Origin: Thiomicrorhabdus indica
Lineage (GTDB): Bacteria; Pseudomonadota; Gammaproteobacteria; Thiomicrospirales; Thiomicrospiraceae
Length of the DNA: 64,000 nucleotides
Reading direction: 5' to 3'
Assembly (NCBI RefSeq): GCF_004293625.1
Contig: NZ_CP033040.1
Span: 1,550,001 to 1,614,000, forward strand
Both the position numbers and the translations under genes were made by a program. Under the pieces are notes generated by a model, which saw nothing but the letters and a program-made list of their open reading frames with translations, ran no database searches and was not told the origin of the DNA. Shown piece by piece: positions 2,297 through 62,348 of the stretch. Numbering within the stretch: position 1 is the first letter of the stretch; every line of letters starts with the position of its first letter.

Positions 2297-2325
2297 TACC
2301 GACCGATAAAACATTACCGGCCGGT
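2297..2325. repeat. ACCGGCCGGT palindrome with degenerate partner, rpsB-tsf gap
   Basis: An exact ACCGGCCGGT at 2316-2325 is preceded at 2298-2307 by ACCGACCGAT, a partner with two changes, about 8 bases away. The two can pair as a short hairpin in the 5' leader of tsf. Function unknown. Confidence 0.6.
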
Positions 2326-2333
2326 AAAAATGA

Positions 2334-3065
2334 TTATTCAGCAGCTTCTTCTACGAAATCATCACCTTCAACTGCAGTCGTGATGGTAGCTTTACCTTCA
2401 TTGATTGCATCTGCAGCGGCAGATAGGTATAGAGAGATTGCACGGATTGCATCATCGTTACCAGGGATAACATAATCAACACCACGCGGATCGTTGTTTG
2501 TATCAACAACACCAACAACAGGAATACCTAAAGTTTTCGCTTCTTGTAGTGCGATTTTTTCGTTACCTGTGTCGATTACAAAAATCGCATCTGGCATAGC
2601 ACGCATATCTTTGATACCACCCAAAGAAAGTTCAAGCTTTTGCTTTTGACGAGTCATCATCAGCGCTTCTTTCTTAGTGATTTTTTCAAAAGTTCCATCT
2701 TGCTCCATCGCTTCAAGTTCTTTTAGACGCTTGATTGATTGCTTGATGGTTTTGAAGTTTGTCAACATACCACCTAACCAGCGGTAATCAACATATGGCA
2801 TACCACAACGTTGAGCTTCTTGTGCAACTAGTTCACGAGCTGCTTTCTTAGTACCAACAAAAAGTACGCGACCTTTGTTCGCAGCAACACCACCCATAAA
2901 ATTCAAAGCATCATTGAACATTGGAAGCGTTTTTTCCAAGTTAACGATATGAATATTATTACGAGCACCAAAGATGAATTCTTTCATTTTTGGGTTCCAG
3001 TAACGAGTTTGGTGACCGAAGTGAACACCAGCTTCCAACATTTGACGCATGGTAACTTTTGCCAT
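2334..3065 (-). CDS. rpsB: 30S ribosomal protein S2
   Basis: Small-subunit ribosomal protein. The 243-residue product starts [27 protein letters not shown], the hallmark S2 N-terminus, and continues with [17 protein letters not shown] and [14 protein letters not shown]. It has the usual acidic C-terminal tail ([10 protein letters not shown]). It is first in the rpsB-tsf operon, preceded by a good AGGAG site and a leader that carries an exact ACCGGCCGGT copy. Confidence 0.98.
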
Positions 3066-3120
3066 GATAGTTTCTCCTAATTGGGGTTAAGCCTCCGTTT
3101 ACCCAGATAAAGCGAACTTT

Positions 3121-3130
3121 ACCGGCCGGT
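3121..3130. repeat. ACCGGCCGGT palindrome in divergent rpsB/map region
   Basis: Exact copy, part of the 12-base palindrome TACCGGCCGGTA. It lies about 55 bases upstream of rpsB, in the 223-bp gap between divergent rpsB and map, where it could fall in the rpsB leader or promoter. Confidence 0.6.
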
Positions 3131-3288
3131 ATCTATTAATTCCAGCCTCAAAGCACCCCGCTCTATGTCACAGTAAACGTGCGGATTTTAAAGTTAATTT
3201 TCTGTTAAAATTGCCTGCAAATTTCAGGCGCGTGATTTATACCACACTCCGCAATAATTCACAATTTAAATCTAAGAAAAGCCAAACT

Positions 3289-4068
3289 ATGAGTATAAAA
3301 ATCAAGACTGCTGAAGAAATCGAGAAACTTCGCATTGCAGGACAACTTGCCGCAGAGGTTCTGGATATGATTGAACCTTTTGTTGTTCCAGGCGTTACAA
3401 CCGGTGAGCTTAATGAAAGAATCCACAAGCATATTACTGAGGTTCAGGATGGCATTCCTGCCACATTAGGCTATCACGGCTTCCCCGCTTCAAGCTGCAT
3501 TTCCATTAACCAAGTTGTTTGCCACGGTATCCCCGGCCCAAAAAAACTCAAAAAAGGAGATATCGTTAACATTGATGTCACAGTTATCAAAGATGGCTAT
3601 CATGGCGACACAAGCCGAATGTTTGAAGTCGGTGATGTTAAACCCTATGCCGCTAGACTTAATAAAGTCGCCAGAGAATGTCTATGGTTAGGAATTGAAC
3701 AAGTCAAGCCCGACGCGACGCTTTACGATGTTGCACTTGCGATTCAAAACCATGCTGAGGCCAATAATTACACGGTTGTAAAAGAGTATTGTGGTCATGG
3801 AATTGGCGCAGAATTTCATGAAGAACCGCAAGTACTGCATTACGCTGCAGAAGAGCTTAAGGATATTGTCCTAAAAGAAGGTATGGTATTTACCATCGAA
3901 CCAATGATTAATATGGGTAAAGCAGACATTAAACTCTTGCCAGATAACTGGACAGTCGTAACAAAAGATCGCAAACTGACTGCTCAATGGGAACATACTT
4001 TAGTCGTGACTAAAGATGGCTATGAAATTTTTACTCTCCGAAAAGACGAAAAGCCTTTCTTGCCGTAA
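3289..4068 (+). CDS. map: Methionine aminopeptidase, type I
   Basis: Removes the initiator methionine from nascent proteins. From the ATG at 3289 the product is 259 residues, MSIKIKTAEEIEKLRIAGQLAAEVL, the standard MAP start; the open frame extends 26 codons further upstream but that extension is not family-like. The five metal ligands are visible: Asp in NIDVTV, Asp in GDTSRMF, His in YCGHGIG, Glu in FTIEPM and Glu in QWEHTLVVT. It is divergent from rpsB and upstream of glnD, the order seen in many gammaproteobacteria. Confidence 0.97.
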   Translation: MSIKIKTAEEIEKLRIAGQLAAEVLDMIEPFVVPGVTTGELNERIHKHITEVQDGIPATLGYHGFPASSCISINQVVCHGIPGPKKLKKGDIVNIDVTVIKDGYHGDTSRMFEVGDVKPYAARLNKVARECLWLGIEQVKPDATLYDVALAIQNHAEANNYTVVKEYCGHGIGAEFHEEPQVLHYAAEELKDIVLKEGMVFTIEPMINMGKADIKLLPDNWTVVTKDRKLTAQWEHTLVVTKDGYEIFTLRKDEKPFLP

Positions 4069-4085
4069 AATTCAATTAAACCACC

Positions 4086-4117
4086 AACCGCTTGAACTCA
4101 AAGGAAATCAAGCGGTT
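4086..4117. terminator. Stem-loop between map and glnD
   Basis: Perfect 10-base arms AACCGCTTGA and TCAAGCGGTT enclose a 12-base loop just after the map stop. No T tract follows on the plus strand, so this may be a weak or Rho-assisted stop, or an mRNA-stabilising hairpin ahead of glnD. Confidence 0.45.
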
Positions 4118-4168
4118 CAAGGCGCTCTCAAATCTCAAGACAACTCGAACTCAACGAACGGATGTATC

Positions 4169-6823
4169 ATGACAAACACTATTTCAGTGAACGACCCTTC
4201 TTTGCCACATTTTATCAGTGCGCTTCAAGACTCAAACCTGAAAGTATTTGAAAAAACAAAATCCGGTCGTGAAGTCGTTCAGCACTTTACACACTACCAA
4301 TTTTCTCAATTTGAAAATGGCTCACATGTAGCAGAGCTCATTAAAGAGCGTGCTAATTTTGTTGATCAAATCCTAAAAAAACTCTGGCAAACATTCATTG
4401 AGGACCCGAATACCAGCCTGATTGCTGTGGGAGGCTATGGACGTGGAGAACTCCATCCCTATTCGGATGTTGACCTTCTGATTATTGCCGATGACCCCAT
4501 GCAACACCAAGAAGCCTTCTCAACCTTTATCACTTTTTTATGGGATATCGGCTTTGAAGTTGGCCACTCGATTCGAAGCCTAGAAGACTGTTTCCAAGAA
4601 GGCTTGGACGATGTCACTACAGCGACCAACTTGTTAGAAGCTCGTTGGATTACTGGAAGCTACGAACCTTTCGAACAGTTACAACAACTTTGGTCAAAAC
4701 CAGATTTCTGGCCAACAAAAACCTTTTTCAAAGCCAAGAAAAACGAACAAGAACAACGACATAAAAGATTCAATGAAACCGTCTATCAATTAGAGCCAAA
4801 CCTAAAAGAAAGCCCAGGTGGATTGCGCGATTTACACACCATTTACTGGATTGCAAAACGTTACTTTAGGGTGCAATCAATCCACGAACTCGTACAGAAA
4901 AAATTTCTAACACCTGAAGAATTCGTTCAAATCGAAGCCGCGAATAAGTATCTTAATCGAGTGCGTTTTGCTTTACATCACATGAAAAAACGACGCGAAG
5001 ACCGACTGCTTTTTGACAACCAACGTTTGATTGCCGAAACCTTCGGTTATCACGATAACCCTGAAAAAATGGCCGTTGAGCAATTTATGTCAGGTTATTA
5101 CCGCAATGTTCAGACCGTGGTCAAACTCAATGAAATCCTAATGCAGCATTTTCATGAGCGCCTATTCGAATCAGATAAAAAAAGCATCCAAAACATTAAC
5201 CCACGATTTTGTTTAATCAATGGATACCTTGATATTCGACACCCAAATGTCTTTGCGCAAAACCCAACCGCGCTTTTAGAAGTCTTTATCGTACTGCAAG
5301 CATTAAAGGAAGCCAAAGGATTGCGTTCAAATGCCATTCGTTCCTTACGAAATCATTTGCATCTAATTAATGACAGTTTTCGAAATGATCCAATTAACAA
5401 AGCACTATTTTTAGAAATATTTCGCCAACCGGCCGGCATCAATGCCGCAGTAAAGAGAATGCATAGCTATGGAATTCTTGGCGCTTATTTGCCAGTTTTC
5501 CAAAAAATTTCAGGGTTAATGCAATTTAATATCTTTCATGCTTATACAGTCGATGATCACACGATTTTAGTCATTCGTAACTTAAGACGTTTTTTTGTAG
5601 ACCACTTCGCTTATGAATTTCCGACTGCCCATCAAATTGCCCAAACAATTTGTAAACCAGAAATCTTATTCATAGCCGCCCTATTTCATGACATTGCAAA
5701 AGGTCGGAATGGCGCTCATGAAATCCTTGGCGCAGAAGACACTCGTCAATTTTGCGAACAACACAATTTGCCTCAAAAAGATGCCAATCTCATTGAATGG
5801 TTAGTTCGTCATCATTTGGATTTTTCGCATGTTGCACAGCGTAAAGATTTAAGCGACCCAAAAATCATTAAAGAATTTGCAGAACTAGTTGATACGCAAG
5901 CCCGTTTAGACCATTTGTATTTGCTTACAGTGGCCGATGTTTGCGCAACATCCGATGATGTTTGGAATGATTGGAAGAACTCCTTGTTCCTAGAGCTCTA
6001 CAATGAAACGTCTAATATGTTGCAACTGAATGAAGATGCTCCAAAAAGTAAGGCTAAAAAAGCCTTAAAAACTCAAGAAGTTGCCAAGGCAACCTTAAGT
6101 AAAATGGAGCTCAAACCATCACAATACAAAACTTTTTGGGAAAGCCTGACGGAAAGTGAATTTTTTAGTCGTCAAACGCATGCTGATGTCGCTCGTTTAA
6201 CAAAAATTTTATATCAACACCAAATGGGCTCAGACAACTGGGTACAAGTTTCTCCAAAATCTTCTCGCGGCGCATCTGAATTAGTCATCTATATGAATGA
6301 CCGCGATTTTCTATTTGCCAATATTGCACACAGTCTTGATCGTCAGAAATTCGATATCATGGAGGCTCGAATTTTTAGTACCACGGACGATAAAACACTG
6401 GTGTTAATGTACTTTCTTGATCGAGACACCCATGAAATTATTAATCAAGACTCCTGTGATACCATTGAATCACGGATTCTCGAGGACTTAATCAAGCCTC
6501 TGCCTGAATCACCGGCTAACGCCTATCCAAGCTACTTAAGTCGGCGTATTCGCTGTTTTGAGACACCTACGCAAATTAGTTTTCACAAAATTAACAAACA
6601 CAAAACAGAACTTTATATCTCTACCCAAGACCGGCCGGGATTATTAGCGCGCATAGGTTTAGCACTTAAACAGTGTAATATTCGCCTACATGATGCAAAA
6701 ATTCATACGGTTGGTGAAAAAGCCGAAGATGTCTTCATTATCAGCGACACACAAGACTTGGCCATTGAAGATAAAGAAGTCCAAAGAATGCTTGAAAACG
6801 CCATTATTGATTTACTCGATTAA
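4169..6823 (+). CDS. glnD: PII uridylyltransferase / uridylyl-removing enzyme
   Basis: Senses glutamine and reversibly uridylylates PII proteins, controlling nitrogen assimilation. The ATG at 4169 gives 884 residues, close to the usual 890; the open frame runs 51 codons upstream into map and is not family-like. The nucleotidyltransferase motif GGYGRGELHPYSDVDLLI lies near residues 88-105. The HD-domain motif ALFHDIAKGRNG is near 505 and supplies the uridylyl-removing activity. Two C-terminal ACT domains lie near 712-780 and 812-880 (TQDRPGLLARIGLALKQCNI) and bind glutamine. Two CCGGCCGG cores fall inside the gene, at 5429 and 6631. The gene arrangement map-glnD is conserved. Confidence 0.96.
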   Translation: MTNTISVNDPSLPHFISALQDSNLKVFEKTKSGREVVQHFTHYQFSQFENGSHVAELIKERANFVDQILKKLWQTFIEDPNTSLIAVGGYGRGELHPYSDVDLLIIADDPMQHQEAFSTFITFLWDIGFEVGHSIRSLEDCFQEGLDDVTTATNLLEARWITGSYEPFEQLQQLWSKPDFWPTKTFFKAKKNEQEQRHKRFNETVYQLEPNLKESPGGLRDLHTIYWIAKRYFRVQSIHELVQKKFLTPEEFVQIEAANKYLNRVRFALHHMKKRREDRLLFDNQRLIAETFGYHDNPEKMAVEQFMSGYYRNVQTVVKLNEILMQHFHERLFESDKKSIQNINPRFCLINGYLDIRHPNVFAQNPTALLEVFIVLQALKEAKGLRSNAIRSLRNHLHLINDSFRNDPINKALFLEIFRQPAGINAAVKRMHSYGILGAYLPVFQKISGLMQFNIFHAYTVDDHTILVIRNLRRFFVDHFAYEFPTAHQIAQTICKPEILFIAALFHDIAKGRNGAHEILGAEDTRQFCEQHNLPQKDANLIEWLVRHHLDFSHVAQRKDLSDPKIIKEFAELVDTQARLDHLYLLTVADVCATSDDVWNDWKNSLFLELYNETSNMLQLNEDAPKSKAKKALKTQEVAKATLSKMELKPSQYKTFWESLTESEFFSRQTHADVARLTKILYQHQMGSDNWVQVSPKSSRGASELVIYMNDRDFLFANIAHSLDRQKFDIMEARIFSTTDDKTLVLMYFLDRDTHEIINQDSCDTIESRILEDLIKPLPESPANAYPSYLSRRIRCFETPTQISFHKINKHKTELYISTQDRPGLLARIGLALKQCNIRLHDAKIHTVGEKAEDVFIISDTQDLAIEDKEVQRMLENAIIDLLD

Positions 6824-6848
6824 ATTTTAGAAAAACAAAGGAAACTTT

Positions 6849-7346: not shown

Positions 7347-7368
7347 TTTTTTGACTCACCAGAACTTA

Positions 7369-7395
7369 CCGTCCGGAAACTCTTCACCGGCCGGT
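7369..7395. repeat. Paired palindrome hairpin between convergent genes
   Basis: TTACCGTCCGG and CCGGCCGGTAA, 10 of 11 bases complementary, enclose about 10 bases and include an exact ACCGGCCGGT at 7386-7395. It is the only strong secondary structure between convergent genes ending at 7346 and 7407, so it may serve as a two-way terminator, although neither side has a strong T tract. Confidence 0.55.
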
Positions 7396-7406
7396 AAATT
7401 TCAATT

Positions 7407-7796: not shown

Positions 7797-7810
7797 AACT
7801 TATAAACACA

Positions 7811-7836
7811 AAAAAGCCCAGTTTAAACTGGGCTCT
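7811..7836 (-). terminator. Rho-independent terminator of dapD
   Basis: AGCCCAGTTTAAACTGGGCT is a perfect 20-base palindrome-type stem at 7815-7834, followed on the minus strand by TTTTT. It lies about 35 bases beyond the dapD stop codon. Confidence 0.9.
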
Positions 7837-7869
7837 CAAACAAATTACAAAACGTTAAACCTTTTGCAA

Positions 7870-9005: not shown

Positions 9006-9044
9006 TCCAGCTCGTATAGCGAATGATTTCCAAAAGGAGCAACA

Positions 9045-9392: not shown

Positions 9393-9432
9393 GCAGACAG
9401 ATTAACACCCAACACATACTAGGAACGACATT

Positions 9433-10566: not shown

Positions 10567-10623
10567 TTCAGCTTCTAGAGCTAACACAAGCTGATAGAAC
10601 AGAACAATTGAAAGGAAATAATT

Positions 10624-10884
10624 TTGACAGAAGAAGCTTTACCGGCCGGTATTCAATACTTATTAATAGGCCTTCAAATATTCGCCTTAATCATATTTTT
10701 GTATTTTATTTGGCCGTTAGTGAAGAGTGAAAATTGGAAAGAAAAGTTTATTGAAAATAAAACTGCGAGATCGATTTTGATAGTGTTCGTTCTAATTTTT
10801 GTATTTGTTTTTGGGTTAGGACAGTTGTTTGATTTTCTATTTCCGCTGGAAACCTTAGAAGGGATACAAAGCAACAACCCTTAA
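10624..10884 (+). CDS. Small two-helix membrane protein
   Basis: 86 residues with two hydrophobic helices (YLLIGLQIFALIIFLYFIWP at about 12-31, and SILIVFVLIFVFVFGLGQLF near 50-69) joined by a charged loop (KSENWKEKFIENKT). It begins with TTG after an AAAGGAAATAA ribosome binding site; no in-frame ATG lies near. The start region contains an exact ACCGGCCGGT at 10641, read as Leu-Pro-Ala-Gly. It follows dapE by 57 bp and may share its transcript. Function unknown. Confidence 0.75.
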   Translation: MTEEALPAGIQYLLIGLQIFALIIFLYFIWPLVKSENWKEKFIENKTARSILIVFVLIFVFVFGLGQLFDFLFPLETLEGIQSNNP

Positions 10885-14542: not shown

Positions 14543-14552
14543 ACCGGCCGGT
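14543..14552. repeat. ACCGGCCGGT palindrome between kinase and binding protein
   Basis: Exact copy (12-base form TACCGGCCGGTA) in the 52-bp gap between the binding lipoprotein stop and the hybrid kinase start, close to the kinase leader. Confidence 0.6.
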
Positions 14553-15496: not shown

Positions 15497-17482
15497 TTAA
15501 TCAACCTGGAGCTGAAATCTTGGTATATGGGCCTCAATACTCACTGCTATTGCCAAAACCACTTCCTCTTCATTCTTGTCGAGTTGTTGATCACCTTCAA
15601 CCATTGAAACAAGTGCAGAAATAAATTGATCTTTTAAACGATCATTGAGCCGACGAATTTTTTTTAATGCTGACTGAATCATCAAATCATTAACCGTTTC
15701 ATCAAGCCTAAAGGTCTGCTGAGAAATGCCTAACTGTAGACAAACCTTATCGTAAAAATCTTGACGTTGTTCCGACCCGACAAACTGGGCAATCATAAAC
15801 TCTAAAACTAAACGAAGCTCCAAATCTACAGGTTTAAAAGTATTAAAAATCGAGTCATCAGAACGTTTTTTTTCTACTAGATGGAATTCTAAAATTTCTA
15901 TTAAAGCTGTTTCATAAACACTGACTTCTTTATCTAACCTAACGACCTGCTCCAAGACTTCTAAAAATAGGGCTTTTTGTTCAGCAGAGAGTTGTTTAAG
16001 GGTAGGCATTGTCACCTCAATCAAACTTAATGCATTGACTTTAGGTAATTTACTTAACAAAGTTTCAATGTTAATTAAGTTACTTTCAATGCCTGGAAAC
16101 TGTGCTTCGTGCCAATCAATGGTTTGGAGCCTTGCAACAAACTCAGTTGACTGCTGCTGTTTTTGTAGAATTAAAACGACGACAAGTGCCACTGAATCTA
16201 ACGGTTCTTGTAAAATTTGAATAAGTTTCCGGTAATTGGTTTCCGATACTGTATCTGTAGCAGAACGCTTTACTTGAAAGGACTGAAGCCACTGAGCGCC
16301 AAACGCTCCAGCAAGCAAACCCAATTGTCCCCATGCAAATTCTGGATTTGCTCCTAAAACGGGATTAAAAGATTCCTTACCGGCCGGCATAGTTTTACCT
16401 TCAACGGTCTTATCACTGACTCGGGGTTCTTTTAAATCAAAACCTTTTAATGTACTTCCATCCCATTTAGGGTCAATTTTTAAAATACGCTCCTTCAGAG
16501 AAGGATGAGTGGCAAACCAATCTAATTTAGACAAGACACCTTGAGCAAAAAACAGATGAGCGTAAATTTCAGAGTTTTGAGATTTGAGATGAGATCCTCT
16601 TTGCTCAGCAGATTGCCGATGAACCACAGGATGTGCGAGAACCTTTAAAGCACCGGCGATACCTTCTGGATTTCGGGTAAATTGCACAGCACTGGCATCA
16701 GCTAAAAATTCACGCTGCCGACTGATTGCCGCTTGCAAAATTTTGGCAAAAAATTCAGCAATCCAACCGATCATCCGCAACAAAATTCCAACCAATACAA
16801 TCAGACCACCTCCTTTTTTGGAACCACGTCGAACTCTATTTGTTCTTCTTGTTGCGGTAAAAAAACGTCCTAAAACGCCTACAAATTCAATCCCTTGAAG
16901 CAACATTATCAAACGAAGATTTAAACGCATATCACCATTTAAAATATGGCTGAATTCATGAGCAATCACCCCTTGCAACTGATCTCGGTCTAGGCGTTCC
17001 AACGTTCCTCGAGTAATTGCGATAATTGCATCGGAAGAGTCAAATCCGGCTGCAAAGGCATTGATATTCGTTTCCTCTTTCAACAAATACAATGGAGGGG
17101 CCGGCAAATTTGCAGCTATCGCCATTTCTTGAACAATATTCAAGGCACGACGTTCGAATCGATTTTGTGTGTTACTTGAGACCAAGGTTCCGCCTAAAAT
17201 TTCTGCGACGGCTGAACCACCACTGGAAAGTTCTCGACTTTTTAAATAAGAGCTAACGAAAGCGCCTATAAATACAAATCCCGAAACGGCAATGAAGACT
17301 GGCCAATTATCAAAATGATAAATGGAAACCATACCATTCGCCTGTTCATGTATAAACAGCGGCACAAGCAGCATTAAAACAAAAGTACTCAGCACAGAAA
17401 CAACAGTGAGAATCACCAGGTACCAAAAAACTAACCATCGTGTTAATTTTTTTGCTTTTTCCTGCTCTTCGAAAAAATTCAT
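15497..17482 (-). CDS. M48 (HtpX-like) membrane metalloprotease with long C-terminal extension
   Basis: 661 residues, more than twice E. coli HtpX (about 290). Two N-terminal membrane helices (about 18-40 and 58-80) are followed by the zinc motif VIAHEFSHILNGD near residue 174 and the third ligand in EFLADASAVQF near 260. Another hydrophobic stretch (GLIVLVGILLRMIGWIAEF) lies between. From residue 380 onward there is a helical region of unknown type, ending in an acidic, possibly cofactor-like domain (QFISALVSMVEGDQQLDKNEEEV). It lies directly after lemA, a pairing seen in many bacteria. A CCGGCCGG core sits at 16380. A role in membrane protein quality control is inferred. Confidence 0.88.
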   Translation of the reverse strand: MNFFEEQEKAKKLTRWLVFWYLVILTVVSVLSTFVLMLLVPLFIHEQANGMVSIYHFDNWPVFIAVSGFVFIGAFVSSYLKSRELSSGGSAVAEILGGTLVSSNTQNRFERRALNIVQEMAIAANLPAPPLYLLKEETNINAFAAGFDSSDAIIAITRGTLERLDRDQLQGVIAHEFSHILNGDMRLNLRLIMLLQGIEFVGVLGRFFTATRRTNRVRRGSKKGGGLIVLVGILLRMIGWIAEFFAKILQAAISRQREFLADASAVQFTRNPEGIAGALKVLAHPVVHRQSAEQRGSHLKSQNSEIYAHLFFAQGVLSKLDWFATHPSLKERILKIDPKWDGSTLKGFDLKEPRVSDKTVEGKTMPAGKESFNPVLGANPEFAWGQLGLLAGAFGAQWLQSFQVKRSATDTVSETNYRKLIQILQEPLDSVALVVVLILQKQQQSTEFVARLQTIDWHEAQFPGIESNLINIETLLSKLPKVNALSLIEVTMPTLKQLSAEQKALFLEVLEQVVRLDKEVSVYETALIEILEFHLVEKKRSDDSIFNTFKPVDLELRLVLEFMIAQFVGSEQRQDFYDKVCLQLGISQQTFRLDETVNDLMIQSALKKIRRLNDRLKDQFISALVSMVEGDQQLDKNEEEVVLAIAVSIEAHIPRFQLQVD

Positions 17483-20588: not shown

Positions 20589-21746
20589 CTAATTCTTTTC
20601 TTTTTCATGTGTTCTCAATGAATACTCAGCTTGAGTTAAGCGCAAAATTTTCCCGGAATCGGTGCCTACATAAACTCGTCCTTTGTCATCAATAGCTAGA
20701 GAACGAATCCGTTCATTTAGATCCGTTAAAGCACGGTATTCACCGGCCGGTAACATTTGTTGATTAAGGCTAACACGATTTAGATGCCGTAATACCAAAG
20801 CACCCGTTAATAAACTGCCTTGCCACATGGAAAACTCATCACCTGAATAAACCAGTAAATCACTCGGGGCAATTGAGGGAATATAAACATATTCAGGATT
20901 TACCATACCAGCCTTCTGCTTCACGCCAACGGCTTTATCAAATCCATACTCTTGGCCTTGCGAAACAACCGGCCAACCATAGTTTTTCCCTTTTTCAATC
21001 CGGTTAATCTCATCTCCACCTCTTGGTCCATGCTCTATTGCCCATAACACATTACGTTGCATATCAAATACCAACCCCTGTGGATTACGGTGCCCATAAC
21101 TCCAGATTTCCGGTTTAAAGCGAGAATGCCCCACAAAAGGATTGTCATCGGGAACACTGCCATCAAGATTCAAACGAATAATGCTACCAATATGATTTTC
21201 ATTATTCTGAGCTGGCGCACGTAAACCTCGATCTCCCACAGAAAAGAACAGGTGACCTTGATCATCAAATGCAATACGACTGCCGTAATGAATATTTCGG
21301 TGACTCGCTGAATCGGTGACCAGAATCTCTTGCCACTCTTTTAATTGATGATTGACTAGCTTGGCTCGTGCTAAAGTCGTTTTACTGGTATCAAAGTCTT
21401 CTTTACTGTAAGTAAAATACAGCCACCCAGTCTGATCATAATCCGGTGATTTGGCAACATCCAATAAACCACCTTGACTGTGAGCGTGAATTTCTGGCAA
21501 ACCTTCAACCCATTGCACCAAATTCGACGACAAATCGTAGATCCCAAGCTTGCCAGAACGGATTGTAAATAGAATTTCAGTTGGACTCACAAACTCCATT
21601 GACCAAATTACACCAAGATTGTTCGTCAACTGTTCAACCTTTATTTGAACAGGCTCAACTTGAGGTTTTGCTTGTGAGTAAGTCGGCAGCAAAACAAGCA
21701 TAACCAGCAATAAATATTTCTTAATTGAATTCGTGATTCTTAACAT
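20589..21746 (-). CDS. PQQ-dependent aldose sugar dehydrogenase (YliI-like)
   Basis: 385 residues from the ATG at 21746, chosen because AAGGAG lies 6 bases upstream. A signal peptide (KKYLLLVMLVLLPTYSQA) directs it to the periplasm. The rest is a six-bladed propeller of the soluble sugar dehydrogenase type: HSQGGLLDVAKSPDYDQTG, SRIAFDDQGHLFFSVGDRG, YGHRNPQGLVFD and AIEHGPRGGDEINRIEKGKN, with the catalytic His in HSQGG. It oxidises the C1 position of aldoses if PQQ is available. Contains an exact ACCGGCCGGT at 20742 read as Pro-Ala-Gly. Confidence 0.9.
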   Translation of the reverse strand: MLRITNSIKKYLLLVMLVLLPTYSQAKPQVEPVQIKVEQLTNNLGVIWSMEFVSPTEILFTIRSGKLGIYDLSSNLVQWVEGLPEIHAHSQGGLLDVAKSPDYDQTGWLYFTYSKEDFDTSKTTLARAKLVNHQLKEWQEILVTDSASHRNIHYGSRIAFDDQGHLFFSVGDRGLRAPAQNNENHIGSIIRLNLDGSVPDDNPFVGHSRFKPEIWSYGHRNPQGLVFDMQRNVLWAIEHGPRGGDEINRIEKGKNYGWPVVSQGQEYGFDKAVGVKQKAGMVNPEYVYIPSIAPSDLLVYSGDEFSMWQGSLLTGALVLRHLNRVSLNQQMLPAGEYRALTDLNERIRSLAIDDKGRVYVGTDSGKILRLTQAEYSLRTHEKEKN

Positions 21747-21780: not shown

Positions 21781-21790
21781 ACCGGCCGGT
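21781..21790. repeat. ACCGGCCGGT palindrome next to small ORF
   Basis: Exact copy just beyond the stop codon (21794) of the 25-residue ORF and 35 bases ahead of the sugar dehydrogenase start. Confidence 0.6.
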
Positions 21791-29436: not shown

Positions 29437-29446
29437 ACCGGCCGGT
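29437..29446. repeat. ACCGGCCGGT palindrome, dsbA-nudix gap
   Basis: Exact copy (12-base palindrome TACCGGCCGGTA) in the 51-bp gap, 5 bases after the oxidoreductase stop. It is the last copy before a 13.8-kb stretch with none. Confidence 0.6.
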
Positions 29447-42394: not shown

Positions 42395-43579
42395 ATGTCA
42401 TTTGCCAAACTTGGATTATCCGCCCCTATTCTTCAAGCACTTTCAGAATCCGGCTATGAAAAGCCAACGGAAATCCAAGCCAAAGTGATTCCTCACATCT
42501 TAAAAGACGAAGACATCATTGCATCCGCTCAAACGGGTTCCGGTAAAACGGCAAGTTTTGTTTTGCCAATTCTGCATAAAATCGAACAAAAAATTGAAAA
42601 AGGGCAAACGCTTCGTGGTCGCTCGATTCGAGCCTTAATTCTCGTGCCAACTCGAGAATTGGCCATGCAAGTTCTGGCCAATGTGCAACAGTATGGACGT
42701 CATCTAACAATCAGTTCACTGGCAATTTATGGTGGAACCAATATTGAAGACAATAAAAGCGAACTGGCTAAAGGAATTGATCTTTTGGTTGCAACGCCCG
42801 GACGATTACTGGATATGGCTTATCAACGCGCTGTGTTCTTCAATGACCTTGAGTTTTTTGTTATCGATGAAGCAGATCGAATGCTTGATATGGGATTTAT
42901 CGAGGATTTAAACAAAATCATTGAACGACTGCCGGCTTCACGTCAAAGCATGTTATTTTCCGCCACATTAGATTCGGATATTCGCTACCTAGCTGAGACC
43001 GTTTATAACGATGCCATCGAAATAGACTTAACACCCCAAAATAAAGCTGCCAGCAATATTTCACAATGGCTGGTCACGGTCGACAAAGACACAAAATCCT
43101 CACTTCTGAGCTTTTTAATTAAAGAACAAAACTGGAAACAAGCACTGATTTTCGTCGAGAAAAAACACTCCGCTGCCAAACTCGTCGAGCAGCTTGGAAA
43201 ACGCGGAATAACGGCGGACTCAATTCATGCCGGCCGGTCACAAGCACAACGTGAAAAAGTTTGGAATGCCTTTAAAAAAGGGGAATTACAATTTCTGGTG
43301 GCAACCAGTGTTGCGGCTCGAGGTTTAGATATGACCAATCTCGAACGAGTGGTCAACTACGATTTGCCCTTCCCTCCGGAAGAATATATCCATCGCATTG
43401 GTCGTACCGGTCGAGCTGGAAAATCGGGAGAAGCGGTTTCACTGGTTTCCAAAGACGACTTTAAAAACCTCTGTATGATCGAAAGCCTTTTAGGTCACAT
43501 TATCGAGCGCCAAGAATTTGAAGAGTTCCCGGTACGTAAAACTGTGCCAGTTTCCATTCTAAATTATCACCTGCGATAA
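42395..43579 (+). CDS. Second DEAD-box RNA helicase
   Basis: 394 residues from the ATG at 42395 (MSFAKLGLSAPILQALSESG); an open frame runs 41 codons further. Motifs: PTEIQAKVIP (Q motif), AQTGSGKT (I), PTRELAMQV (Ia), [13 protein letters not shown] (II), SATLDSD (III), ATSVAARGLDMTN (V) and [10 protein letters not shown] (VI). The basic C-terminal tail of RhlE is absent. It belongs with RhlE-like or CsdA-distinct short helicases. Contains a CCGGCCGG core at 43230. Confidence 0.93.
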   Translation: MSFAKLGLSAPILQALSESGYEKPTEIQAKVIPHILKDEDIIASAQTGSGKTASFVLPILHKIEQKIEKGQTLRGRSIRALILVPTRELAMQVLANVQQYGRHLTISSLAIYGGTNIEDNKSELAKGIDLLVATPGRLLDMAYQRAVFFNDLEFFVIDEADRMLDMGFIEDLNKIIERLPASRQSMLFSATLDSDIRYLAETVYNDAIEIDLTPQNKAASNISQWLVTVDKDTKSSLLSFLIKEQNWKQALIFVEKKHSAAKLVEQLGKRGITADSIHAGRSQAQREKVWNAFKKGELQFLVATSVAARGLDMTNLERVVNYDLPFPPEEYIHRIGRTGRAGKSGEAVSLVSKDDFKNLCMIESLLGHIIERQEFEEFPVRKTVPVSILNYHLR

Positions 43580-43637: not shown

Positions 43638-44246
43638 TTACTCAGATTTTGACCAAACCAAAATCCGATTATTGACTGGCATTTCAATATCATTTTCAAG
43701 TATCAGTCCAGCATCCATTGCTAATTGATGACACCACTCAAAATCTTTAATGCTACTTTGTGGATTGCGCTGCTTTAACCAAACATCAAAATTTGCATTA
43801 CTCTCAGAGGTAAACGCATTGTTGTAGTTAAAGGGCCCATAAATCAAAACATGTGCGCCCTCTTGCAACACACCTGCAATATTGGCAAAAAAATCGACCA
43901 CATTTTGCTGACTCATAATATGAAAGCTATTCGCACTGAATACCGCATCATATTTGCAATCAGGCCACACGGATTCAGAAACATTTAACTCTACCGGCCG
44001 GTGAATATTTGGCAAATCCGCCTCATCCAACCACTGACAAATGCCAGAATGTGACTCGATTAAATCGGAAGTTTGCCAAGTCAAATGCGGCAACTGACTA
44101 GAAAAATACACAGCATGCTGCCCTGTTCCACTCGCAATCTCTAACACCGAAGATTTATTCGCTAAATACGGATGAATCGACTCAAAAATAACAGTTTTAT
44201 TCTCTTCACTCGATTGTGAAAAAGGTTTTGGTGTTGCAAATTTCAT
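43638..44246 (-). CDS. DUF938-family class I SAM-dependent methyltransferase
   Basis: 202 residues from the ATG at 44246 (GTGGAAA site); a TTG 24 bases earlier also opens the frame. SSVLEIASGTGQHAVYFSSQ is the SAM-binding loop (motif I), and YDAVFSANSFHIM (motif IV-like) and GAHVLIYGPFNYNNAFTSES follow. The family is common near housekeeping genes and its substrate is unknown. Exact ACCGGCCGGT at 43993. Confidence 0.9.
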   Translation of the reverse strand: MKFATPKPFSQSSEENKTVIFESIHPYLANKSSVLEIASGTGQHAVYFSSQLPHLTWQTSDLIESHSGICQWLDEADLPNIHRPVELNVSESVWPDCKYDAVFSANSFHIMSQQNVVDFFANIAGVLQEGAHVLIYGPFNYNNAFTSESNANFDVWLKQRNPQSSIKDFEWCHQLAMDAGLILENDIEMPVNNRILVWSKSE

Positions 44247-51285: not shown

Positions 51286-51364
51286 TTTACCGGCCGGTAT
51301 TTGTCCGAGTGGGTGAATTTTTATTCACTTTCCACCCATTCGAACATAAATACCGGCCGGTAAA
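51286..51364. repeat. Large hairpin with two ACCGGCCGGT copies in the aceE-aceF gap
   Basis: Exact palindromes at 51289-51298 and 51352-51361 are the outer arms of a nested inverted repeat: the strands beyond them (ATTTGTCCGAGTGGGTG and CACCCATTCGAACATAAAT) also pair with few mismatches, closing on GTGAAT/ATTCAC with a short loop. It covers most of the gap between the aceE terminator and aceF. Confidence 0.75.
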
Positions 51365-54419: not shown

Positions 54420-54429
54420 ACCGGCCGGT
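54420..54429. repeat. ACCGGCCGGT palindrome, aceE-rppH gap
   Basis: Exact copy 23 bases from the rppH terminator stem, in the gap upstream of aceE. Confidence 0.6.
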
Positions 54430-55184: not shown

Positions 55185-55194
55185 ACCGGCCGGT
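55185..55194. repeat. ACCGGCCGGT palindrome, rppH/HAD divergent region
   Basis: Exact copy in the 238-bp gap between divergent genes, about 80 bases before the phosphatase start. Confidence 0.6.
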
Positions 55195-55953: not shown

Positions 55954-57327
55954 TCAGGCACCTATCCAAACTTGCTGGACATTGACAAACTCCAAAATAC
56001 CGTGTGGCCCCAACTCGCGACCATACCCCGATCGCTTAATACCGCCACTGGGCAATCTTGGATCGGTTTTCACTATGCCATTGATTGCCACTTGTCCGGC
56101 TTCAATTTGATTCGCCATCTCGATTCCCTTTTGGGTATCCGATGTCCAGATGGAAGCGGCTAAACCATAAGGGGTATCATTGGCAATCTCTAACGCCTCT
56201 TGGGCAGAATCCGCTTTCATTACCACTGCAATAGGCCCAAAGGTCTCCTCGCAAGAAGCCTGCATTTTAGGTGTCACATCAACCAATAGAGTGACCGGAT
56301 AAAAGAAACCCGACCCTTCTGGCATCTCTCCCCCCAGAAGACATCTTGCCCCCTGATTAATAGTGGTGGACACTTGACGGTGCAATGCATCCCTTAAGTC
56401 CTCTCGAGCAATTGGCCCGACTTGGGTTTCCGGTAGCGATGGATCGCCAACCTTCAGCTTCTCTAAATGCGATTTGAGTTTTGAAATAAACTCGTCATAC
56501 ACACTCGCTTCAACAATCAACCGTTTGGCCGCAATACAAGACTGCCCCGCATTAATAATACGAGAGATCGCCAAAGTCTCTGCAGCTTTGGAAATATCGG
56601 CATCCGCCAAAACAATACTTGGGTCAGAGCCACCTAGCTCCAATACTGCCGGTTTAATCTGGCTGGCGGCCAAGGAAGCCACGGCACTCCCGGCTGCACT
56701 AGAACCTGTCAAGGAAACTGCTTGCACGACCTCACTTTTAATGACTTGCGCCACTTGCTCTCGATGAATGGGGAGGTTTTGAACAATACCGGCCGGTAAA
56801 TCTAAACGGTTACAAGCCTGATCAAATAACTCGGCAATCGCAATCGCACATTTTGGCACATGCTCATCATGCTTCATTAAACAGACGTTTCCAGCCATCA
56901 AAGCTGGCGCAGCAAAACGAAATGCCAACCAGAATGGGGCATTCCAAGGTAGCACTCCTAAAATTGACCCCAAAGGCAGGTGTTGGACGTAACTGTGAGC
57001 CGCATCCGAAGGCAAATCCACTGGAGATAGATATTGCTCTCCGAATTCTGCGTAATGTTCGGCACACCACGCTGACTTTTCCAGTTCACCATAGGACTCA
57101 TTAATCGGCTTGCCCATTTCTATCGTCATCAATCTAGCCAAACGTTCACGATCAGCGCGCATCAACTCTGCGACTTTTTTCAACATTGCCGCACGCTGAG
57201 CAAAACCGGTAGTTTTCCAGGACTGAAACACCTCTTGTGAACGCTCAATAGCTTGGGATAACTCATTTTCATCCATGGGTGGATAGGCGTGAATCGACTC
57301 ACCAGTCGTTGGATTGGTTGCAATTAG
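55954..57327 (-). CDS. doeC: Aldehyde dehydrogenase, likely aspartate-semialdehyde dehydrogenase of ectoine breakdown
   Basis: 457 residues from the ATG at 57327 (AGGAGG site). NAD(P)-dependent aldehyde dehydrogenase: cofactor-loop segment QAVSLTGSSAAGSAVA, catalytic Glu in VLELGGSDPSIVLADA and catalytic Cys in NAGQSCIAAKRLIVE. The gene overlaps the doe operon (4-bp gap after doeA). In ectoine catabolism DoeC oxidises aspartate semialdehyde to aspartate; family alone would also allow succinate-semialdehyde dehydrogenase. Exact ACCGGCCGGT at 56788. Confidence 0.85.
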   Translation of the reverse strand, partial: LIATNPTTGESIHAYPPMDENELSQAIERSQEVFQSWKTTGFAQRAAMLKKVAELMRADRERLARLMTIEMGKPINESYGELEKSAWCAEHYAEFGEQYLSPVDLPSDAAHSYVQHLPLGSILGVLPWNAPFWLAFRFAAPALMAGNVCLMKHDEHVPKCAIAIAELFDQACNRLDLPAGIVQNLPIHREQVAQVIKSEVVQAVSLTGSSAAGSAVASLAASQIKPAVLELGGSDPSIVLADADISKAAETLAISRIINAGQSCIAAKRLIVEASVYDEFISKLKSHLEKLKVGDPSLPETQVGPIAREDLRDALHRQVSTTINQGARCLLGGEMPEGSGFFYPVTLLVDVTPKMQASCEETFGPIAVVMKADSAQEALEIANDTPYGLAASIWTSDTQKGIEMANQIEAGQVAINGIVKTDPRLPSGGIKRSGYGRELGPHGILEFVNVQQVWIGA

Positions 57328-58625: not shown

Positions 58626-59891
58626 CTATACTGCCGTGTTTAAGCGCAAATGCTCATCAATCGCTGCCTTAAAGATTTCCAAACCAGCATGTAAATCCTC
58701 ATCAGGAATCGTCAGTGGCGGAATCAACTTCATAACCTCACCGCCAATACCACAAGGGCCAAACAGCATGCCATTTTCAAAACAGGTCTTAGCAATTGCT
58801 TTCGAAAGCACTCCATCTTTCACATCCAGTGCTTGCATCATGCCTTTGCCTCGAACTTCAAAACCTTTGTCACGGTATTGTTTGGCAATGTCTTGCAGGA
58901 AATGATGCATAATTTCCCCCTTACGGCGAACCTCGCTCATCAACTCATCATCTTCAAAATAACGAAGCGCTTCACGTCCAGCAACAAACGATAAGTTCTG
59001 CCCGCGGAAAGTACCGGTATGCTCACCTGGCTGCCAGTGCTTATCGAATTCCGGTTTCACCAGATTCATTGCCATTGGTGTCCCCATGCCACCGATTCCT
59101 TTTGCCAAGGTAATAATGTCAGGATTAATGCCTAAATCTTCAAAACTGAAATAATTTCCTGTTCGGCCACAGCCTGCTTGAATGTCATCAACGATCAATA
59201 ACGCTCCCACCTCTTTCGCAAGACTTTGCAAGGCTTGCATCCACTCTTTTGAAGCAACATTGACCCCGCCTTCTGCCTGAACGGTCTCTACGATAAATGC
59301 GGCAGGTGCTTCTACACCACTAGACGTGTTGAGATACATCGCTTTAAGGGTTTCAATGGTCGAAAGCCCACCTCCAAAGTGAGTTTCAAAAGGACATCGA
59401 GAGACATTATTTAAGGTTACACCGGCAGCATTTCGGAAATATTCATTGGCGGTACAGGCAAGAGCACCCAGTGTCATACCGTGGAAGCCTTGCGTGAAAG
59501 CGACAATATTTGACCGGCCGGTCACTTTGCGAGCCAACTTCAAAGCGGCTTCAACCGCATTGGTCCCCGTCGGCCCCATGAATTGCAATTTATAATCTAA
59601 GTTTTTCGGTTGGAGAATGGTTTCAACAAAGGCTTGAATAAAGTCTCGTTTGGCTGGCGTCATCATATCCAGTGTATGAATAACCCCCCCTTGATTTAGG
59701 TAATCGACCATTGCCTTGGTCATCTTAGGATTGTTATGCCCAAAATTGAGCACTCCTGCACCAGCATAAAAGTCGATATAAACCTTTCCCTCCTCATCGA
59801 CTTGCTTTGCATTATCACCCTTAACAAACACCGCTGGATAGGCTCGACTGTAGGCTCTAATCTCTGATTCATAGCTTGTAAACCAGTCCAT
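58626..59891 (-). CDS. doeD: Diaminobutyrate aminotransferase, DoeD
   Basis: 421 residues from the ATG at 59891 (AAGGAGGG site). PLP-dependent class III aminotransferase: GPTGTNAVEAALKLARKVTG, FTQGFHGMTLGALACTANEY, LIVDDIQAGCGRTGNYFSFE and ITLAKGIGGMGTPMAM with the PLP Lys. Very similar layout to EctB, the biosynthetic enzyme, but the doe neighbours assign it to degradation. It turns diaminobutyrate into aspartate semialdehyde. An exact ACCGGCCGGT is at 59513, read through Thr-Gly-Arg. Confidence 0.88.
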   Translation of the reverse strand: MDWFTSYESEIRAYSRAYPAVFVKGDNAKQVDEEGKVYIDFYAGAGVLNFGHNNPKMTKAMVDYLNQGGVIHTLDMMTPAKRDFIQAFVETILQPKNLDYKLQFMGPTGTNAVEAALKLARKVTGRSNIVAFTQGFHGMTLGALACTANEYFRNAAGVTLNNVSRCPFETHFGGGLSTIETLKAMYLNTSSGVEAPAAFIVETVQAEGGVNVASKEWMQALQSLAKEVGALLIVDDIQAGCGRTGNYFSFEDLGINPDIITLAKGIGGMGTPMAMNLVKPEFDKHWQPGEHTGTFRGQNLSFVAGREALRYFEDDELMSEVRRKGEIMHHFLQDIAKQYRDKGFEVRGKGMMQALDVKDGVLSKAIAKTCFENGMLFGPCGIGGEVMKLIPPLTIPDEDLHAGLEIFKAAIDEHLRLNTAV

Positions 59892-61118: not shown

Positions 61119-61247
61119 GTCAAACACCCCAGAAAATAAAATGGAAGGTTTTTTCACCTTATCAAACAAAGACTGCTTCAGCAAAAAATTTGGAGCATGT
61201 GCATCCCCCTAAAGAGTCGACTTTGAATCACCAACTAAAAACAAAAA

Positions 61248-61277
61248 AGCCAGAGCCGACAAACGTCGACTCTGGCT
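61248..61277 (-). terminator. Rho-independent terminator of the flavodoxin gene
   Basis: AGCCAGAGTCGAC pairs with GTCGGCTCTGGCT around a 4-base loop, followed on the minus strand by TTTTTT. It separates the flavodoxin gene from the doe operon, which therefore needs its own promoter. Confidence 0.9.
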
Positions 61278-61307
61278 TATTGTCAATTCAGAGGGTTCTG
61301 AAATCGG

Positions 61308-61820
61308 TTACATTTCAAACTCTTCTTTGACCTGTGCAACCCAAGCAGCTACACGTTCATCAGTTAATTCTGGTTGCTGGTCTTCATCAATTCCTAACCC
61401 AACAAAAAACTCTTCATCTTCAGTAATCGCTTTAGATTCATCAAATTCAAAGCCATCAGTAGAGGTGTAACCGGCCGGCATCGCACCATTTTCAACCGCC
61501 ACATCATGCATCAAACCCATTGCGTCTAAAAAATACTCCGAATAATCTGCCTGATCGCCTAAACCAAAACAAGCTACCGTCTTGCCAGTAAAGTCAATAC
61601 CTTTGAAATCTTCCCAAAAGTCGTCCCAAGAACTCTGCAATTCGCCATAGTACCAAGTTGGCTGACCCAAAATAATTTTGTCATACTGTGCAAAGTCATC
61701 CGCTTTTGCGGTCGCAATATCATGTACATCCACGTTATCTGCACCAATTGCATCCTTAATCAAGTCTGCAACACGCTCAGTATTTCCTGTATCCGTTCCA
61801 TAGAAAAGGCCAATTTTGCT
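61308..61820 (-). CDS. fldA: Flavodoxin, long-chain
   Basis: 170 residues from the ATG at 61820 (AAGGATAG site). FMN-phosphate loop GTDTGNTERVADLIKDAIG, the isoalloxazine loop in LGQPTWYYGELQSSWDDFWE and ACFGLGDQADYSEYFLDAMG. The acidic surface fits an electron carrier. A CCGGCCGG core is at 61471, read as Ala-Gly. The acidic terminus VAAWVAQVKEEFEM matches FldA-type length. Confidence 0.94.
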   Translation of the reverse strand, partial: SKIGLFYGTDTGNTERVADLIKDAIGADNVDVHDIATAKADDFAQYDKIILGQPTWYYGELQSSWDDFWEDFKGIDFTGKTVACFGLGDQADYSEYFLDAMGLMHDVAVENGAMPAGYTSTDGFEFDESKAITEDEEFFVGLGIDEDQQPELTDERVAAWVAQVKEEFEM

Positions 61821-62099
61821 CATGAGTCTATCCTTTATAAAGCAATCTTTAAGAGTCATTTAAAGCGAACCACGCCAGCCAAAACCGTTCACAGCCGCAT
61901 ATCATATGATGTTATTGAATCTTAAAGCCAAACGAAATTCAATTACTAAGAGTTGATTTAGATCGGTTTCGTAACTTTCCGTCAGATTTTTCCTAAATTT
62001 TTCGGTGTGAAACGCCATCAAAATTTTACAACCCTAAAATCAGAAGAGATAATAGCACTCACATTCTATTCCTTGAACAGACTCTTTTTATTATTTGAA

Positions 62100-62327
62100 A
62101 TGAAAAAAACTGATTTTATTGATTGTTTTGCCTGCAAGCATTTTTACGTCACCTGGGATCAAAACAACCCAAAAGGTTGTCGCGCATTCGGCTTTAAAAC
62201 AAAGAAAATGCCCAGTGTGGTTGTGTTTGAAAACTCTGGGGAAAAATGCCTGAAGTTTGAATTAAAAGACGAGCACAAAAAACAACAGGAAAAGAAAGCG
62301 CCAAAAAAAAGAGGTTGGACGGCTTAA
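62100..62327 (+). CDS. Small cysteine-containing conserved protein
   Basis: 75 residues from the ATG at 62100; an open frame extends 31 codons upstream without a family match. FIDCFACKHFYVTWDQNNPK then GCRAFGFKTKKMPSVVVFEN has four cysteines (DCFACKH, GCRAF and SGEKCLKFE) that could bind a metal. Similar small proteins are common in proteobacteria and are often mis-annotated as uracil-DNA glycosylase. The tail is Lys-rich (KKQQEKKAPKKRGW). No function known. Confidence 0.75.
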   Translation: MKKTDFIDCFACKHFYVTWDQNNPKGCRAFGFKTKKMPSVVVFENSGEKCLKFELKDEHKKQQEKKAPKKRGWTA

Positions 62328-62338
62328 ATCAAAACTCA

Positions 62339-62348
62339 ACCGGCCGGT
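62339..62348. repeat. ACCGGCCGGT palindrome between convergent genes
   Basis: Exact copy in the 70-bp gap between convergent genes ending at 62327 and 62398. No other hairpin lies there. Confidence 0.6.

What the first reader, a model, noticed from the sequence alone, without database searches (positions are those of the whole stretch)
2316..62348. An iterated perfect palindrome (ACCGGCCGGT) marks this genome and is absent from its accessory DNA
Nineteen exact copies in 64 kb were read directly. From base composition (about 41 percent GC) well under one copy (about 0.02) is expected. Five further octamer cores occur, all in genes. Copies avoid 29.45-43.23 kb and 44.0-51.29 kb: about 21 kb covering most of the signalling/ankyrin/IS region plus lpdA and aceF. 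Being a palindrome it is suited to a homodimeric protein or a methyltransferase, like cyanobacterial HIP1 (GCGATCGC), or could be an uptake or segregation signal. I know of no description of this motif for such a genome, but I could not search.
Basis: partly seen in the sequence, partly recalled or inferred. Interest (0 to 1): 0.92.

Follow-up and report, generated by a model that had tools for sequence, protein, structure and literature searches.

The report
Palindromic DNA tag, possible uptake signal
One sulfur-oxidising bacterium carries about a thousand exact copies of a ten-letter DNA palindrome that the relatives searched nearly lack, laid out much like the DNA uptake signals known from two other bacterial families, although nobody has shown what it does.

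Summary
ACCGGCCGGT occurs 19 times in the window and 1025 times in the genome, against 1 for the reversed control. The 31 other genus members searched have 0-15; of 402 other genomes none exceeds 46. The real element is a 24-bp dyad, AAAnTTT-ACCGGCCGGT-AAAnTTT, both flanks independently enriched.

It meets most published hallmarks of uptake sequences: perfect copies outnumber one-mismatch copies, preference for non-coding DNA and gene ends, close pairs forming hairpins, origin by substitution, and an A-then-T flank as in Pasteurellaceae USS. Regular spacing is met only at short range. A full ComEC is present. No match to cytosine methylase families PF00145 or PF01555 argues against a HIP1-type explanation.

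Best reading, about 48%: a third, palindromic DNA uptake signal. Main rival: a genome-wide dimeric DNA-binding protein. No receptor was found and no function shown. "Absent from accessory DNA" is only partly right.

The parts
2316..2325 (.). decamer between rpsB and tsf (intergenic, same-strand genes)
   Evidence: genes
3121..3130 (.). decamer in the leader of rpsB, inside an Rfam t44 match
7386..7395 (.). decamer between convergent genes
10641..10650 (.). decamer between convergent genes
14543..14552 (.). decamer between same-strand genes; dyad flank score 10 of 12
20742..20751 (.). decamer inside a glucose/sorbosone dehydrogenase-family gene, phase 2 (xPAG)
21781..21790 (.). decamer between same-strand genes
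23701..23710 (.). decamer inside the 3' end of a nitroreductase-family gene, phase 2
27401..27410 (.). decamer inside a RhlE-like helicase gene; the same site in two relatives differs by substitutions, no gap
28128..28137 (.). decamer inside the same RhlE-like gene, phase 2; dyad flank score 10 of 12
29437..29446 (.). decamer just after a thioredoxin-family gene; dyad flank score 10 of 12
43993..44002 (.). decamer inside a DUF938 gene
51289..51298 (.). decamer between aceE and aceF
51352..51361 (.). second decamer between aceE and aceF, 63 bp from the first
54420..54429 (.). decamer upstream of aceE, between same-strand genes
55185..55194 (.). decamer between divergent genes
56788..56797 (.). 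decamer in an aldehyde dehydrogenase gene inside a 5.4-kb segment absent from the same place in T. marina
59513..59522 (.). decamer in a class III aminotransferase gene in the same 5.4-kb segment
62339..62348 (.). decamer between same-strand genes; dyad flank score 10 of 12
5429..5436 (.). octamer core with the outer A but not the outer T, in glnD
6631..6638 (.). octamer core with the outer A but not the outer T, in glnD
16380..16387 (.). octamer core with the outer A but not the outer T, in an HtpX-like gene (below the family cut-off)
43230..43237 (.). octamer core with the outer T but not the outer A, in a DEAD-box helicase gene
61471..61478 (.). octamer core with the outer A but not the outer T, in an ORF of 183 aa
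29912..42395 (.). 12.5-kb signalling/ankyrin island absent from the syntenic place in T. marina; no decamer, 4.1 expected

Best explanation
The element is a 24-bp two-fold symmetric sequence, AAAnTTT-ACCGGCCGGT-AAAnTTT, and is most likely a DNA uptake (self-recognition) signal. Inferred mechanism: a receptor of the cell-surface DNA uptake machinery binds DNA carrying this dyad much better than other DNA; the DNA is drawn in and passed through ComEC as single strands; recombination then replaces the homologous stretch. Because fragments with a perfect site are taken up more often, perfect sites accumulate genome-wide by drive rather than by selection on each site, wherever the sequence tolerates them (non-coding DNA, gene ends, and the peptide xPAG in genes). 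Two neighbouring copies form a stem, so some pairs may have been put to use as transcription terminators. Shown here: copy number, symmetry, placement, hairpin-forming pairs, origin by substitution at the few sites that could be aligned, restriction to this species in the sample searched, a full ComEC, and no match to two cytosine-methylase families. Inferred: competence, the receptor, uptake bias, the drive, and terminator activity.
For: 1025 copies against 1 for the reversed control. Perfect 270, all one-mismatch forms 79 (18.8 expected), 43 of the 79 at the outermost base and 0 at the centre. Density per kb in the 750-kb sample: convergent gaps 2.45, tandem 1.19, divergent 0.40, coding 0.25. 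12 pairs 18-34 bp apart; 11 of them lie among the 108 copies classified as intergenic, where 3.4 pairs are expected (sd 1.7, largest of 1000 runs 9). The 22 copies of those 11 pairs are beside same-strand or convergent genes; all 11 fold into stems of 10 or more pairs, and 6 of 11 (8 of 15 gene-oriented readings) have 5 or more T in the next 10 nt. Short-range evenness: gaps of 100-500 bp 19 seen, 30.6 simulated (P 0.008); gaps of 2-4 kb 78 seen, 58.9 simulated (P 0.003). Substitution, not insertion: 13 of 15 aligned pairs, at 9 of 270 sites, have no gap in the core. PMC1626085 (sections 3, 7, 9 read) gives for USS/DUS: strong consensus, non-coding preference, close opposite pairs, regular spacing; for H. 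influenzae USS, no insertions; and for USS a flank whose first bases are usually As and final 3 or 4 bases Ts. ComEC is full length. 58% genic lies between the 65% and 35% reported for H. influenzae and N. gonorrhoeae (PMC1939737, passages).
Against: The element is a palindrome with both flanks used equally and independently (two-sided model better than one-sided by 20.5 ln units); USS and DUS are non-palindromic (PMC3388099, passages) and the USS A/T segments lie on one side of the core, so two-fold symmetry looks more like a homodimer site. No other genus member searched has the motif in number and samples of the two closest showed no comparable word, whereas USS and DUS are shared across families. 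Evenness is not robust: variance/mean of 20-kb bins is 0.60 or 0.99 depending on where the bins start, and the spread of gaps equals simulation. Only 9% of copies (24 of 270) are in close pairs, against nearly 50% as inverted repeats in meningococcus (PMC3388099), although about 10% is given in PMC1939737. No receptor was found; pilin-like genes fall in clusters of unknown role. ComEC occurs in 28 of 32 genus genomes, so it does not single this species out. Density, 1 per 2.8 kb, is below the one per kb of USS and DUS. Competence of this organism is untested.
Confidence: 0.48

Rival explanations
1. A cytoplasmic homodimeric DNA-binding protein (nucleoid-associated or chromosome-organising) binds the 24-bp dyad across the chromosome. 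Sites sit outside genes and at convergent gene ends where they disturb least or act on supercoiling.
For: Two-fold symmetry with independent flanks. Enrichment at convergent ends. Every 20-kb stretch sampled has at least one copy.
Against: Perfect copies outnumber one-mismatch forms 270 to 79; PMC1626085 contrasts the strong USS/DUS consensus with the more relaxed consensus of regulatory-protein sites. About 1000 sites would each carry very weak selection (inference). 157 of 270 are in genes.
Confidence: 0.28
2. A HIP-type sequence: a DNA methyltransferase reads part of the palindrome and methylation-guided mismatch repair ratchets sites upward.
For: Palindromic, GC-rich, highly iterated; one-mismatch forms fall mostly at the outermost base, as reported for HIP1. 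An rCCGGy HIP exists in Oscillatoria PCC 10802 (PMC4390886, passages and part 1 of section 18 read), and the decamer contains two overlapping rCCGGy sites.
Against: The genome has 0 matches to PF00145 and 0 to PF01555, and the octamer core has no A to methylate. In PMC4390886 alternate HIPs come with a specific methylase, although some HIP1-rich genomes lack the CGATCG enzyme. Gene-end preference and hairpin pairs are not part of that model in the parts I read. Other methylase families were not searched.
Confidence: 0.1
3. A family of transcription-terminator or REP-like elements selected at gene ends.
For: 11 of 12 close pairs lie at gene ends and form stems of 10 or more pairs, 6 of 11 with a T-rich tail.
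Against: Only 24 of 270 copies are in such pairs and 157 of 270 are in genes; a single 10-bp palindrome should form no useful hairpin (inference).
Confidence: 0.05
4. A small mobile element, or a recombination/insertion target, whose copies were inserted.
For: Near-perfect copies in one species only. One edge of a 4.2-kb block shared with T. marina falls 7 bp past a copy.
Against: Aligned relatives show substitutions, not insertions, in 13 of 15 pairs, and no pair shows a 10-base gap at the core. Flanks are graded, not copied. Only one such block was examined.
Confidence: 0.03

Closest known systems
Pasteurellaceae uptake signal sequence (USS; AAGTGCGGT and ACAAGCGGT)
   Same: Core ending in GGT followed by an A-then-T segment; strong consensus; non-coding preference; close opposite pairs; arose by substitution (PMC1626085); inverted repeats as terminators (PMC12616744 introduction).
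   Different: Here a perfect palindrome with the A/T segment on both sides, no second A/T segment visible out to +20, no GCGG inner core, one species only in the sample, 1 per 2.8 kb. The two USS words occur 5 and 8 times in 750 kb of this genome.
Neisseriaceae DNA uptake sequence (DUS; GCCGTCTGAA)
   Same: A ten-base word in very many copies (about 2000 in meningococcus), some pairs used as terminators (PMC3388099 passages).
   Different: Not palindromic, inner core CTG, no flanking motifs; 0 copies in 750 kb of this genome.
Cyanobacterial HIP1 and alternate HIPs (GCGATCGC, rCCGGy)
   Same: GC-rich palindrome iterated genome-wide; extensions that stay palindromic (PMC4390886 passages).
   Different: HIPs generally go with DNA methyltransferases; here no match to the two cytosine-methylase families searched, plus A/T-tract flanks and gene-end pairs. 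GCGATCGC occurs twice in 750 kb.
Noc/SlmA-type chromosome binding sites (recalled, no call)
   Same: A/T-flanked dyad read by a dimer (recalled).
   Different: Those are tens of sites with a gap at the terminus (recalled); here about 1025, 157 of 270 sampled in genes, and no empty 20-kb stretch sampled.

Membership tests
DNA uptake sequence (USS/DUS type, in the general sense) | A short word hugely over-represented in the genome | tested here: met
   1025 against 1 control; 270 against 1.04 expected in 750 kb
DNA uptake sequence (USS/DUS type, in the general sense) | Many more perfect than one-mismatch copies | tested here: met
   270 perfect, 79 one-mismatch in 750 kb
DNA uptake sequence (USS/DUS type, in the general sense) | Preference for non-coding DNA with many coding copies | tested here: met
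   157 of 270 genic in DNA that is 16% intergenic; densities (my own gene predictions)
DNA uptake sequence (USS/DUS type, in the general sense) | Closely spaced pairs forming terminator-like hairpins | tested here: met
   12 pairs; 11 among classified intergenic copies against 3.4 expected; 11 of 12 folded, all stems
DNA uptake sequence (USS/DUS type, in the general sense) | More regular spacing than random | tested here: inconclusive
   too few 100-500 bp gaps and too many 2-4 kb gaps, but 20-kb variance/mean is 0.60 or 0.99 by bin start and the spread of gaps equals simulation
DNA uptake sequence (USS/DUS type, in the general sense) | Arose by substitution, not insertion | tested here: met
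   13 of 15 aligned pairs ungapped in the core; the other two have 1-2 base gaps; only 9 of 270 sites could be aligned
DNA uptake sequence (USS/DUS type, in the general sense) | Shared or in dialects across the genus or family | tested here: not met
   0-15 copies in 31 genus members; no comparable word in samples of the two closest relatives
DNA uptake sequence (USS/DUS type, in the general sense) | Competence machinery present | tested here: inconclusive
   Full ComEC; pilus-like genes; other competence genes not tested
DNA uptake sequence (USS/DUS type, in the general sense) | Motif promotes DNA uptake through a specific receptor | not testable with these tools
   needs uptake assays
Pasteurellaceae USS | GCGG inner core; A/T segments on one side only | tested here: not met
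   core is CCGGCCGG; flanks two-sided, nothing further out to +20
Neisseriaceae DUS | CTG inner core, non-palindromic | tested here: not met
   the decamer has no CTG and is a palindrome
HIP (highly iterated palindrome) | Iterated GC-rich palindrome | tested here: met
HIP (highly iterated palindrome) | Cognate cytosine methyltransferase in the genome | tested here: not met
   0 matches to PF00145 and PF01555; the controls rang in 10 and 11 of 14 named genomes. Other methylase families not searched.

The most novel reading that the evidence does not exclude
A third, independently evolved sequence-specific DNA uptake system, in a sulfur-oxidising bacterium of a genus of chemolithoautotrophs, whose signal is a 24-bp palindrome instead of a directional word, and which is confined to one species in the sample although nearly all sister species have ComEC: self-DNA recognition that arose within a genus and rewrote about a thousand sites.
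Probability: 0.43. Interest if true: 0.92.

Novelty: new variant of a known kind. Interest (0 to 1): 0.8.

Why it matters
Neisseriaceae and Pasteurellaceae are stated to be the only families known to recognise self DNA by genomic uptake motifs (PMC12616744, introduction). A third case, with sister species that lack the motif, would make the open question of how such systems arise directly testable: the before and after states lie in one genus. A palindromic signal would also constrain how the receptor reads DNA. If it proves to be a cytoplasmic dimer site instead, a genome-wide dyad with so strict a core and no match to the two cytosine-methylase families would still lack a counterpart in what I read.

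Tried and rejected
Literal search for the decamer in 5.39 million papers gave 9 hits with titles on trypanosomes, Alzheimer's risk, a geminivirus, lemur MHC, a metallo-base-pair duplex, cancer metastasis, prions, kiwifruit and papillomavirus; seen as a listing only, none opened. Searches for HIP1, uptake sequences, palindromes and Thiomicrorhabdus/Thiomicrospira listed no paper whose title or abstract start describes this motif. Passages only were seen of PMC5217627 (a survey of spaced motifs; no hit for Thiomicrospira or CCGGCCGG), PMC3497702, PMC6501319, PMC10608990 and PMC3630211. Subscription papers are not held, so this is not proof of absence.

One-sided (USS-like) extended motif: tested by EM and by model comparison and rejected. 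The EM's higher raw likelihood did not survive its BIC penalty (-205), and left and right flanks are uncorrelated.

Dialects in relatives: k-mer counts of 257 kb of G013, 140 kb of G024 and 149 kb pooled from 27 short loci showed no comparable dispersed word (top 10-mer in G013: 13 against 1.6). The pooled set's top words are probably conserved sequence of the shared aceE locus (inference).

Phages: one viral-contig scan for ACCGGCCGGTAANNTTT gave 24 stretches; 23 held one decamer and one held two.

Receptor hunt: 12 pilin-like hits in the genome (3 below the family cut-off) fall in a cluster that I took by eye for type II secretion, a cluster of large pilin-like proteins with relatives in G013 and G024, and a pilus-like cluster with a probable DGR; none singled itself out.

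Accessory test by gene: genes without a T. marina orthologue between anchors had 17 copies in 68 kb, orthologous genes 12 in 76 kb, opposite to the depletion claim. Islands picked by eye from that table gave 8 of 50 copies in 30% of the block. Both are given because they disagree; fast-evolving genes count as non-orthologous in the first.

The 20-kb evenness depends on bin start. Evenness was therefore lowered from met to inconclusive, and the best explanation from 0.50 to 0.48, the dimer rival raised from 0.27 to 0.28 and the novel case lowered from 0.45 to 0.43. The five octamers are now described as having one outer base changed.
Full report
What the sequence is. Proteins of the window match Thiomicrorhabdus (aceE: 93% to T. 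marina 6S2-11, then other Thiomicrorhabdus and Hydrogenovibrio). The window is 1,550,001-1,614,000 of a single 2,829,883-bp contig. No call names the species itself.

The observation. ACCGGCCGGT is at the 19 stated places and 100 shuffles gave none. The genome has 1025 copies, 1 per 2.76 kb, against 1 of the reversed word. In the first 464 kb of the genome read, the decamer and words overlapping it topped the over-representation lists: 171 copies, counted as 342 on two strands, against 1.42 expected by order-3 Markov. In 750 kb, 27% of the genome, there are 270 against 1.04 expected.

It is confined to this species in what could be searched. The other 31 genomes of the genus have 0-15. Among 403 distinct genomes, this one included, the next highest has 46, with 34 of the reversed control. 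Twelve named records reached through loci have 0-15. G013 and G024, the two closest by aceE, have 15 each, partly clustered: five of 15 within 21 kb in G013 and groups of 4, 3 and 3 of 15 in G024. Part of the G013 cluster is a 4.2-kb block 92.9% identical to this genome, with two copies intact in both and CusF, multicopper-oxidase and outer-membrane-efflux genes, against about 75% for aligned DNA generally. So motif-bearing DNA has moved between these lineages; the direction is inferred from copy number.

The real element. Bases next to the decamer are A-rich at +1 to +3 and T-rich at +5 to +7 in both genic and intergenic copies. Both sides show it independently: of 270 sites 90 have the T tract on both sides, 125 on one and 55 on neither; a symmetric model beats a one-sided model by 20.5 ln units. 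The element is therefore AAAnTTT-ACCGGCCGGT-AAAnTTT, with T tracts about one helical turn from the dyad (inference from the spacing). The core is strict: 79 one-mismatch forms in 750 kb against 270 perfect, 43 of them at the outermost base and none at the central base.

Where it sits. With gene predictions made by my own script, 157 of 270 copies are in genes, 108 between classified genes and 5 at stretch edges, in DNA that is 16% intergenic. Density per kb falls from convergent gaps (2.45) through same-strand gaps (1.19) and divergent gaps (0.40) to coding DNA (0.25). In genes, 110 of 157 fall in the frame that encodes xPAG (peptides). Twelve pairs lie 18-34 bp apart. Eleven are among the 108 classified copies, all beside same-strand or convergent genes, against 3.4 expected if copies are scattered within their class; the twelfth is at a stretch edge and was neither classified nor folded. 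The eleven fold into stems of 10 or more pairs at -19 to -26 kcal/mol; 8 of 15 gene-oriented readings have at least 5 T in the next ten bases. Spacing is more even than random at short range (100-500 bp gaps 19 seen, 30.6 simulated; 2-4 kb gaps 78 seen, 58.9 simulated), but not at 20 kb, where variance/mean is 0.60 or 0.99 depending on bin start, and the overall spread of gaps equals simulation.

How it arose. Only 9 of 270 motif sites could be aligned to the parts of G013 or G024 fetched (15 pairs, one of them to a non-syntenic place). Of these, 13 pairs have no gap in the core, two have a 1-2 base gap, and 4-7 of the 10 bases are identical. The sites arose by substitution, not insertion.

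What reads it. The octamer core holds only C and G. The genome has no match to C5 methylases (PF00145; 16 of 32 genus genomes have one) or to N4/N6 methylases (PF01555; 9 of 32). This argues against the HIP1 model, in which alternate HIPs come with a methylase (PMC4390886; passages and part 1 of section 18 read); the same paper notes HIP1-rich genomes without the CGATCG enzyme. Other methylase families were not searched; they would have to act on the outer A. A full ComEC is present (930 aa, three Pfam domains), and 28 of 32 genus genomes match the ComEC family. The pilin-like genes found do not single out a receptor.

Comparison with uptake sequences. PMC1626085 (sections 3, 7 and 9 read) lists for USS and DUS: preferential but not exclusive non-coding location, somewhat more regular spacing than random, closely spaced opposite pairs, and far more perfect than one-mismatch copies; for H. 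influenzae USS, origin by substitution; for USS, an A/T segment just 3' of the core whose first bases are usually As and last bases Ts. All but regular spacing are met here, and spacing is inconclusive. Not met: sharing across the family, a directional core and one-sided flanks. It is therefore not filed as a USS or a DUS. The claim is that it most likely works like one. [quoted passage not shown]

The accessory-DNA claim. In the 147-kb block collinear with T. marina, islands chosen by eye hold 8 of 50 copies in 44.7 kb (two-sided P = 0.03); the two islands over 10 kb hold 1, but these were partly chosen because they were empty. By gene, non-orthologous genes are not poorer in copies than orthologous ones. 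Decamer-free gaps over 10 kb are about as frequent as chance predicts, although the longest, 23.4 kb, is longer than the 15 kb expected. Depletion in large islands is likely; absence is wrong.

Verdict. A real, strong, species-level genomic signal with most of the anatomy of an uptake sequence and the symmetry of a dimer site. I put about 48% on uptake and 28% on a genome-wide dimeric binder, with HIP-type, terminator-type and mobile-element readings below that.

Noticed in passing
L258 (G000:C1:1858000-1869000), 1622-10912: A reverse transcriptase ORF (RVT_1, with an Lcl_C match at its start), a bAvd-like ORF and a protein ending in an Lcl_C domain lie beside T2SSE- and T2SSF-type genes and a weak PilO-like match: it looks like a diversity-generating retroelement attached to a pilus-like system.
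   Followed up: partly
G000:C1:1649247-1660450 (L156, L157): A run of 14 small predicted genes, 13 on one strand, with a few direct repeats in the region, no orthologues found in the T. marina contig and no decamer inside: possibly an integron-like cassette array.
   Followed up: partly
L262, 2695-6882 (G000:C1:102694-106881) and G013:C11:239639-243815: A 4.2-kb block with CusF, multicopper-oxidase and outer-membrane-efflux genes is 92.9% identical between this genome and T. marina, much above their background; one edge falls 7 bp past a decamer.
   Followed up: partly
window 3086-3201: Rfam t44 match upstream of rpsB (ribosomal protein S2), with a decamer inside the leader.
   Followed up: partly
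window 45792-45934: An Rfam isrN match (66.5 bits) beside an IS-type integrase ORF with rve domains (45088-45729); not examined further.
   Followed up: no
window 29912-42395: 12.5-kb island with two GGDEF proteins, a rhodanese-domain protein, a hybrid histidine kinase-like protein and two ankyrin-repeat proteins, absent from the same place in T. marina.
   Followed up: partly
G000:C1:1816338-1839722: The longest decamer-free stretch in the 750 kb read, 23.4 kb at 38.9% GC; contents not examined.
   Followed up: no
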